Shown here: positions 37,365 to 38,257 of the stretch, piece by piece
Layout: the number at the start of each line of letters is the position of its first letter
Numbering within the stretch: position 1 is the stretch's first letter
Source: Micromonospora chersina
GTDB lineage: Bacteria > Actinomycetota > Actinomycetes > Mycobacteriales > Micromonosporaceae
Length of the DNA stretch: 64,000 nucleotides
Reading direction: 5' to 3'
Assembly (NCBI RefSeq): GCF_900091475.1
Contig: NZ_FMIB01000002.1
Span: 3,038,001-3,102,000 of the forward strand
Notes under the pieces: generated by a model
What the model was told of the DNA's origin: nothing
Databases searched by the model: none
What the model saw: the letters and a program-made list of their open reading frames with translations, nothing else
Made by a program: the position numbers and the translations under genes

Positions 37365-37700
37365 TCAGCGGGCGGTGACGGCCGCGCGGTGACCGGCGAT
37401 GGCAGCCGCGGCAGCGAAGCCGAACGCGCCGCCGGCCACGGCCGGCAGGATGGTGACGCTGTCACCGTCGTTGAGCTTGGCGTCGAGCGCGCCGAGGAAG
37501 CGGACGTCCTCGTCGTTGACGTAGACGTTGACGAACCGGTGCAGGGCGCCGGCGTCGGTGACCAGCCGGGCCCGCAGGCCGCCGTGCCGGGAGTCCAGGT
37601 CGGCGAGCAGGTCGCCCAGGGTGTCGCCGCTGCCCTCGACGACCTTCGCGCCGCCGGTGTAGCTGCGCAGGATGGTGGGGATGCGAACCTCGATGGCCAT
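37365..37700 (-). CDS. cysO: Ubiquitin-like sulphur carrier CysO with a C-terminal extension
   Basis: 111 aa from ATG 37700. Residues 1-91 match the MoaD/ThiS-like CysO fold: [39 protein letters not shown] and [14 protein letters not shown]. In M. tuberculosis the protein ends at this Gly-Gly, which becomes the thiocarboxylate. Here 20 more residues follow (92-111, Ala-rich, starting AFGF). The tail would have to be cut off before the carrier can be activated. The adjacent JAMM protease gene 71 nt upstream is a candidate for that job. Confidence 0.9.
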
Positions 37701-37771
37701 GATGTCTCGTGCTCCTTGTTCGGGTGCTGCCAGGTGACGGAAGGAAGAAAAGGTGTGCCGGCGCTGGGAGG

Positions 37772-38257
37772 TCAGCGGTCGGAACACTCGTAGTCGACCG
37801 TCGCCGGGCTCTGCCCGAACATGTAGGACTGGACGGCGTGCGGGTCCACGGCAGCCACGATCTCGACCGGCTCCTCGGTGACCACGCCGTCGACGATCCG
37901 GAAGGACCGGATCTCCTCGGTGTCGGGCTCGCGGGTCGAGACGAGCAGGTAGTGCGCTCCCGGCTCACCGGCGAAGGAGATGTCCGTGCGGGACGGGTAG
38001 GCCTCCGTCGCGGTGTGCGAGTGGTAGATGACGACCGGCTCCTCGTCGCGGTCGTCCATCTCGCGCCACAGCCGCAGCTGCTCCATCGAGTCGAACTCGT
38101 AGAAGGTCATGGAGCGGGCGGCGTTCGCCATCGGGATGTGCCGGGTCGGGGTGTCGCTGCCGGCGGGACCGGCGACCACGCCGCACGCCTCGTCCGGGTG
38201 GTCCCGGCGCGCGTGGGCCACGATCGCGTCGATGATCGACCGGTCGATGCTCAGCAC
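37772..38257 (-). CDS. mec: JAMM/M67 metallopeptidase (Mec)
   Basis: 161 aa from a GTG. The JAMM zinc site is complete: Glu23 in DEACGVV, then HSHTATEAYPSRTD with His79, His81, Ser89 and Asp92. In M. tuberculosis Mec cuts cysteine from the CysO-cysteine adduct. It starts the operon mec-cysO-cysM from a leaderless promoter. With the tailed CysO it may also act as a maturation protease, as QbsD does for QbsE (known family precedent as I recall). Confidence 0.93.
   Translation of the reverse strand: MLSIDRSIIDAIVAHARRDHPDEACGVVAGPAGSDTPTRHIPMANAARSMTFYEFDSMEQLRLWREMDDRDEEPVVIYHSHTATEAYPSRTDISFAGEPGAHYLLVSTREPDTEEIRSFRIVDGVVTEEPVEIVAAVDPHAVQSYMFGQSPATVDYECSDR

What the first reader, a model, noticed from the sequence alone, without database searches (positions are those of the whole stretch)
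37365..38257. CysO with a 20-residue tail after Gly-Gly, beside a JAMM protease
The carrier CysO in M. tuberculosis ends in ...ILPAVAGG. Here the same Gly-Gly (residues 90-91) is followed by 20 Ala-rich residues in frame before the stop. A tailed ubiquitin-like carrier cannot be thiocarboxylated until cut. The mec gene just upstream has a complete JAMM site (Glu23, His79, His81, Ser89, Asp92). This would be a ubiquitin-precursor-like maturation step in bacterial cysteine synthesis, comparable to QbsE/QbsD.
Basis: partly seen in the sequence, partly recalled or inferred. Interest (0 to 1): 0.72.

Follow-up and report, generated by a model that had tools for sequence, protein, structure and literature searches.

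The report
Tailed sulfur carrier beside its protease
In this Micromonospora genome, and in most of its sampled family, the small protein that is predicted to carry sulfur for making cysteine is encoded with an extra tail after its working end, and the protease encoded next to it would likely have to cut that tail off before sulfur can be loaded.

Summary
CysO (37365-37700, minus) has Gly90-Gly91 followed by 20 codons and a stop. Mec beside it has the full JAMM signature and is the genome's only match to Prok-JAB; JAB (PF01398) finds none. The tail is no local error: 136 of 146 family CysO loci read here carry residues after Gly-Gly, 106 of 146 nine or more. The tail has two parts. The first ten residues, A-[FL]-[GA]-[FLI]-AAAAA-x, are under purifying selection (pN/pS 0.08-0.34); the distal part drifts (about 1.0). 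The genome's three other full ThiS-fold carriers stop exactly at Gly-Gly. Elsewhere in Actinomycetota the cap is often 1-2 residues. Twelve Geodermatophilaceae loci encode ...GG-Cys, by sequence the CysO-Cys adduct that Mec is reported to hydrolyse, and one genome joins CysO through Gly-Gly to CysM. Best reading: Mec matures CysO by cutting after Gly91; cleavage is untested. Capped carriers paired with JAMM proteases are known (QbsE/QbsD; Streptomyces PtmS2/PtmS1), so this is a new variant of a known kind: a long propeptide with a conserved start.

The parts
37365..37700 (-). cysO, 111 codons plus stop: ThiS-fold sulfur carrier with a C-terminal tail
   Evidence: Pfam ThiS 66.7 bits, residues 5-91; NCBIfam MoaD family 52.1 bits, cut-off 49.5
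37428..37433 (-). codons of Gly90-Gly91, predicted cleavage just after Gly91
   Evidence: Sequence; aligned to the C-terminal Gly-Gly of the M. tuberculosis chain 3dwg_C
37398..37427 (-). conserved proximal tail, residues 92-101 ([10 protein letters not shown])
   Evidence: pN/pS 0.264 in 100 motif-selected loci, 0.337 in 106 unselected loci and 0.076 in 257 close pairs
37368..37397 (-). variable distal tail, residues 102-111 ([10 protein letters not shown])
   Evidence: pN/pS about 1.03 from residue 11 of the tail on in 58 equal-length pairs
37772..38257 (-). mec, JAMM metalloprotease with Glu23, His79, His81, Ser89, Asp92; predicted to cut CysO after Gly91 and to release cysteine
   Evidence: Pfam Prok-JAB 109.4 bits; signature; only Prok-JAB match in the genome, no JAB match
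36388..37353 (-). cysM, PLP-dependent cysteine synthase, predicted to use the CysO thiocarboxylate
   Evidence: Best solved relative is the M. tuberculosis chain named Cysteine synthase B / O-phosphoserine sulfhydrylase, E 1.4e-150, full length
38313..38819 (-). DUF2017 gene of the same block
   Evidence: Pfam DUF2017 166.6 bits
38813..39112 (-). clpS of the same block
   Evidence: NCBIfam ClpS 147.6 bits, cut-off 86; start codon not settled

Best explanation
The window encodes the sulfur carrier CysO with 20 residues after its Gly-Gly, and the neighbouring JAMM protease Mec is predicted to cut after Gly91 so that the activating enzyme MoeZ can load sulfur on the freed end. The order inferred: CysO is made capped; Mec hydrolyses the Gly91-Ala92 bond and releases the tail; MoeZ (an E1-like gene with a rhodanese-like end, elsewhere in the genome) adenylates and thiocarboxylates Gly91; CysM passes the sulfur to an activated serine, giving CysO-Cys; Mec hydrolyses Gly91-Cys, releasing cysteine and CysO for another round. 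Both Mec steps break the bond after the same Gly-Gly. The proximal tail is kept by selection, most likely because it sets how well Mec or another partner handles the precursor; the distal tail is free filler. Shown: gene order, tail, its conservation, the single JAMM-type gene. Inferred: every reaction in this organism.
For: Tail in 136 of 146 family loci, all 146 with Mec upstream and CysM downstream on the same strand and the JAMM signature in Mec. Proximal tail under purifying selection, distal tail not. Mec is the only Prok-JAB match and JAB gives none. The three other full ThiS-fold carriers of the genome end exactly at Gly-Gly. Twelve named Geodermatophilaceae loci encode GG-Cys, the sequence of the adduct that Mec is reported to hydrolyse in M. 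tuberculosis (PMC3227635, passages). One genome joins CysO to CysM through Gly-Gly with Mec upstream. In distinct non-motif caps the residue after Gly-Gly is A, S, G, C, T or M in 52 of 60, against 213 of 378 at later positions. Precedents: PtmS1/PtmS2, archaeal CsRpn11 removing nine residues after Gly-Gly, Deinococcus DRJAMM cutting MoaD-MoaE.
Against: No direct evidence of cleavage. Mec also accompanies uncapped CysO (10 of 146 family loci, 25 of 64 phylum loci). No Mec residue was found that tracks loss of the tail motif. The motif has been lost several times, so it is not indispensable. Ten of 26 distinct carrier genes without Mec in the locus are capped too. In S. platensis the products survived inactivation of ptmS2, put down to redundancy. 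The predicted tail helix has low confidence, pLDDT 51-58.
Confidence: 0.8

Rival explanations
1. The tail is cut off, but by another protease (for example Clp, whose adaptor ClpS is encoded in the same block), and Mec only releases cysteine.
For: clpS lies in the same block. Mec is present beside uncapped CysO as well, and no Mec residue tracks tail loss.
Against: The cut must fall exactly after Gly-Gly, which is the bond that Mec is reported to break in CysO-Cys. GG-Cys caps are that substrate by sequence. The JAMM gene was needed for the thioacid products in S. platensis.
Confidence: 0.1
2. The tail stays on and works as a regulatory or targeting helix; tailed CysO is not a sulfur carrier until some other event, or a mixed pool exists.
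For: The proximal tail is conserved as protein and modelled as a weak helix.
Against: The rest of the pathway is present (MoeZ-like gene, CysM, Mec), this is the only CysO gene beside it, and thiocarboxylation is reported at the C-terminal glycine.
Confidence: 0.07
3. The tail is a neutral read-through of the spacer towards cysM, tolerated because Mec trims anything after Gly-Gly.
For: Distal tails drift (pN/pS about 1), some grow by repeats such as ISSHSAAAAA, and caps of many unrelated sequences occur across the phylum.
Against: The first ten codons are conserved as protein over about 100 loci while synonymous sites vary (pS 0.3-0.5), and the motif needs 8 changes on the Mec+CysM tree against a shuffled mean of 38.9.
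Confidence: 0.1
4. Assembly or annotation error that removed a stop after Gly-Gly.
For: None found.
Against: 120 of 120 listed homologues and 136 of 146 family loci are capped.
Confidence: 0.01

Closest known systems
Mycobacterium tuberculosis MoeZ-CysO-CysM-Mec cysteine pathway (PMC3227635, passages; PDB 3dwg, 3dwm, 3dki)
   Same: Same gene set and order of mec, cysO, cysM (order in M. tuberculosis recalled); CysO core aligned over residues 2-91 and CysM over its full length
   Different: M. tuberculosis CysO ends at Gly-Gly (93 residues); here 20 residues follow
Streptomyces platensis PtmS2/PtmS3 capped carriers with JAMM protease PtmS1 (PMC6006322, passages)
   Same: Carrier with residues after Gly-Gly, clustered with a JAMM gene that is needed for the thioacid products
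QbsE/QbsD of thioquinolobactin biosynthesis (named in PMC6006322; original paper not held, details recalled)
   Same: Capped carrier that needs a protease to expose Gly-Gly
   Different: Siderophore pathway, short cap (recalled); here cysteine synthesis
Caldiarchaeum subterraneum CsUb precursor and CsRpn11 (PMC6043591, passages)
   Same: JAMM enzyme cuts a ubiquitin-like precursor exactly after Gly-Gly; residues after the cut affect the rate
   Different: Ubiquitin-type modifier with E2 and E3, nine residues removed; here a sulfur carrier
Deinococcus radiodurans DRJAMM and MoaD-MoaE (PMC8832034, passages)
   Same: JAMM cut frees the C-terminal Gly of a sulfur carrier from a fusion; compare the CysO-CysM fusion L278
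   Different: Molybdopterin pathway, whole enzyme as the tail
Chuangxinmycin CxnE/CxnF in Actinoplanes (PMC12087186, passages)
   Same: Ubiquitin-like carrier paired with a deubiquitinase-like protein, in a genus whose named CysO loci here are tailed
   Different: Described there as sulfur transfer in an antibiotic cluster; tail maturation is not in the passages seen

Membership tests
CysO sulfur carriers | ThiS/MoaD fold ending in Gly-Gly | tested here: met
   Pfam ThiS 66.7 bits over residues 5-91; ILPAVAGG at 84-91
CysO sulfur carriers | Gly-Gly is the encoded C-terminus, as in the M. tuberculosis type protein | tested here: not met
   20 residues follow Gly91; 136 of 146 family loci are capped
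CysO sulfur carriers | Operon with mec and cysM | tested here: met
   Window; 146 of 146 family loci
CysO sulfur carriers | Partner CysM of the O-phosphoserine type | tested here: met
   Full-length match to the M. tuberculosis enzyme, with the Arg of LRNxDEG aligned; that this Arg is residue 220, linked to phosphoserine use, is recalled
CysO sulfur carriers | Thiocarboxylated by MoeZ | not testable with these tools
   A MoeZ-like gene with a rhodanese-like end is present (rhodanese part read by eye)
Mec / JAMM metalloproteases | Glu plus H-x-H-x7-S-x2-D | tested here: met
   Glu23 and HSHTATEAYPSRTD at 79-92; Pfam Prok-JAB 109.4 bits
Mec / JAMM metalloproteases | Zinc-dependent peptidase activity | not testable with these tools
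   Needs an assay
Capped sulfur carrier plus JAMM protease (QbsE/QbsD, PtmS2/PtmS1 kind) | Residues encoded after Gly-Gly | tested here: met
Capped sulfur carrier plus JAMM protease (QbsE/QbsD, PtmS2/PtmS1 kind) | Clustered JAMM gene | tested here: met
   mec adjacent; only Prok-JAB match in the genome
Capped sulfur carrier plus JAMM protease (QbsE/QbsD, PtmS2/PtmS1 kind) | Cut exactly after Gly-Gly by that protease | not testable with these tools
   Inferred only; assay proposed

The most novel reading that the evidence does not exclude
Micromonosporaceae CysO is a true zymogen: a selected propeptide of about ten to thirteen residues, helix-forming and read by Mec or by a partner, gates the entry of new carrier into cysteine synthesis, and Mec is one enzyme with two jobs, first opening the carrier and then releasing each cysteine. 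Geodermatophilaceae go further: the ribosome makes CysO-Cys itself, so a newborn carrier enters the cycle at its last intermediate.
Probability: 0.4. Interest if true: 0.72.

Novelty: new variant of a known kind. Interest (0 to 1): 0.52.

Why it matters
CysO is usually pictured from M. tuberculosis, with a bare Gly-Gly. In this sample, which is weighted to one family, 223 of 274 distinct cysO genes with Mec in the locus are capped. If Mec removes the cap, one enzyme joins two steps, carrier birth and cysteine release, and bacterial primary metabolism has a ubiquitin-precursor-like step. The natural GG-Cys caps give a simple test of what Mec accepts.

Tried and rejected
Assembly error or missed stop: rejected.

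All ubiquitin-like carriers of this genome tailed: rejected; the other three full ThiS-fold matches end at Gly-Gly. Two more matches are weak and partial (L036, over the cut-off only with its neighbours, and L037, below it) and were not taken as carriers.

Tail conservation due to DNA or RNA constraint: not supported, since synonymous sites vary.

Mec residues that follow tail loss: seven loss events were compared with sister rows that I chose from the tree; nine columns differed in three or more events, all of them variable in tailed rows too. No signature.

Proline avoidance just after Gly-Gly: 0 of 60 distinct non-motif caps (P 0.007), but 0 of 37 after merging caps that share their first two residues (P 0.14). 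Not claimed.

Recurrent CysO-CysM fusion: a search with residues 1-100 of the fusion gave 18 longer proteins, none with the PALP domain listed.

Papers: ten searches listed no title or abstract start about a long CysO tail in Micromonosporaceae; the library holds CC0, CC BY and CC BY-SA papers only. PMC4082789 and PMC1855785 are not held, so Sasaki 2014 and Godert 2007 were not read. Passages of PMC11361707 and PMC8951365 were seen and add nothing to the argument. No paper was read whole.

Full report
What is there. On the minus strand the window holds clpS (about 38813-39112), a DUF2017 gene (38313-38819), mec (37772-38257), cysO (37365-37700) and cysM (36388-37353). CysO is 111 residues with Gly90-Gly91 followed by [20 protein letters not shown] and TGA; the start has GGAG upstream. 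Mec carries Glu23 and HSHTATEAYPSRTD at 79-92. The block fits the actinobacterial operon type described as ThiS/MoaD, JAB, cysteine synthase, ClpS and a helical protein (PMC1779556, passages). The genus is Micromonospora by the names of the nearest proteins and because a genome of the same genus group, G116, has a contig of 32729 bases that matches a named Micromonospora record in number and length.

The tail is family-wide. Of 150 genomes of the family, 147 have a CysO match and 146 a Mec match; three lack both, and a fourth, incomplete one (G063) has a weak CysO match and no Mec. I read 146 CysO loci (30, 116; the weak G063 match was left out). Caps: none in 10, 1-2 residues in 20, 3-8 in 10, 9-16 in 58, 17-50 in 48. 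All 146 have Mec upstream with the JAMM signature and CysM downstream, on the same strand. The rule A[FL][GA][FLI][AVL][AV] is met by 100 of 146, 101 with T allowed at position 5. On a Mec+CysM tree (FastTree; one long, misplaced row, L024) the motif sits in one clade of 115 rows, support 98, of which 100 have it, 13 have other caps and 2 have none. Motif against no motif needs 8 changes (shuffled mean 38.9; starred branches force at least 4), which I read as one gain and several losses; such counts cannot by themselves tell gain from loss.

Selection. Pairwise Nei-Gojobori proportions (pairs are not independent) give pN/pS 0.264 for tail codons 1-10 in 100 motif-selected loci, against 0.211 for the 30 codons before Gly-Gly. 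In 58 equal-length pairs the tail from residue 11 on gives 1.03 and its first ten codons 0.121. In 257 close pairs (87 loci) the tail gives 0.076 and the core 0.227. Tail positions 14 to end give 1.08 in 49 equal-length pairs, where codons 1-10 give 0.297. So a conserved element directly behind Gly-Gly is followed by drifting sequence.

Internal control. Four open frames of this genome hold full ThiS-fold matches; two more matches are weak and partial. Three of the four, one of them CysO-like and ending ILPSVAGG, stop exactly at Gly-Gly; only the one beside mec is tailed. There is one Prok-JAB match, no JAB match, and one full-length ThiF/E1 match, with three partial ones; its frame runs into a rhodanese-like end, read by eye.

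Beyond the family. Of 80 named loci (the best 80 of 535; they overlap with the family set), 64 are capped and 78 have Mec on the same strand. Twelve have a single Cys (titles Modestobacter, Blastococcus, Geodermatophilus; Modestobacter is of the Geodermatophilaceae, the other two by recall); others have 1-2 residues such as MV, MN, SI or AR, or longer caps. In the Cys group the gene ends GGCGGCTGCTGA where relatives in Modestobacter and Blastococcus read GGCGGCTGA. In 88 phylum loci (28, 60 picked by me from its list, with Streptomyces paralogues chosen on purpose) 64 have Mec on the same strand: 39 capped, 25 uncapped. The other 24: 8 capped, 16 uncapped. The signature reads H-[ST]-H in 61 of those 64 Mec proteins and H-C-H in three. 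Merging identical cysO genes over all sets, 223 of 274 with Mec in the locus are capped and 10 of 26 without (Fisher 7e-6, not corrected for kinship or for my picking). Eight of those ten belong to seven genomes, each of which has a Prok-JAB gene somewhere; the other two, L137 and L140, were not followed. L278 encodes CysO and CysM as one chain joined at Gly-Gly with Mec in the locus. CysO-like domains joined to an E1-rhodanese also occur, one of them read as AGG-AATE.

Sequence after the cut. Among 60 distinct non-motif caps with Mec in the locus, the first residue is A 24, S 16, M 5, G 4, R 3, E 2, T 2, Q 2, H 1, C 1; 52 of 60 are A, S, G, C, T or M, against 213 of 378 at later positions. 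This is like archaeal CsRpn11, where residues just after Gly-Gly must fit: Cys79Glu and Gly80Trp blocked cutting, Cys79Gly sped it up (PMC6043591, passages). The AlphaFold model has a firm beta-grasp core and a weak helix at 93-109, pLDDT 51-58.

Mechanism. In M. tuberculosis MoeZ thiocarboxylates the last Gly of CysO, CysM makes CysO-Cys and Mec hydrolyses it (PMC3227635, passages). A tailed CysO has no free Gly carboxylate, so a cut after Gly91 should come first. Mec is the only JAMM candidate found here and is reported to break the bond after the same Gly. The GG-Cys caps are, by sequence, its reported substrate. Maturation by Mec is therefore the most likely reading (0.8), with cleavage untested. 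In S. platensis capped PtmS2 and PtmS3 and the required JAMM gene ptmS1 set the precedent; the products survived inactivation of ptmS2, put down to redundancy (PMC6006322, passages).

Against the reading. Mec accompanies bare CysO too, Mec shows no residues that track tail loss, and the motif has been lost several times. What the proximal tail does exactly stays open: recognition, rate control or protection are all possible.

Verdict. Observation confirmed; maturation well supported by comparison but unproven; a new variant, a long propeptide with a conserved start, of the known pairing of capped carrier and JAMM protease.

Noticed in passing
L278:344-1543 (minus): CysO and CysM encoded as one 399-residue chain joined at Gly-Gly, with Mec in the same locus. 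Seen once.
   Followed up: partly
L097, L101, L103, L106, L108, L109, L113, L124, L126-L128, L133: CysO ends GG-Cys; relatives in the same genera end GG, the difference being one TGC codon before the stop.
   Followed up: partly
L085 (Geodermatophilaceae MAG): CysO ends [18 protein letters not shown], a repeated C-terminus with two Gly-Gly sites.
   Followed up: no
L051: A 41-residue cap built of SGGLxPxxPAARG repeats, unlike the Micromonosporaceae tail.
   Followed up: no
L019: A Micromonospora-genus CysO with a short tail, AFGFVAAR, that keeps only the start of the motif.
   Followed up: no
P0042, P0081, L080: Distal tails grow by tandem copies of units such as ISSHSAAAAA.
   Followed up: no
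P0131: CysO-like domain joined through AGG-AATE to an E1 and rhodanese domain.
   Followed up: no
G137, G024, G015: Three family genomes list a second, more distant Mec match elsewhere (47-64% identity).
   Followed up: no
window 38313-38819: The DUF2017 protein weakly matches the NCBIfam model of AosR, an oxidative-stress regulator (67.8 bits, cut-off 260).
   Followed up: no
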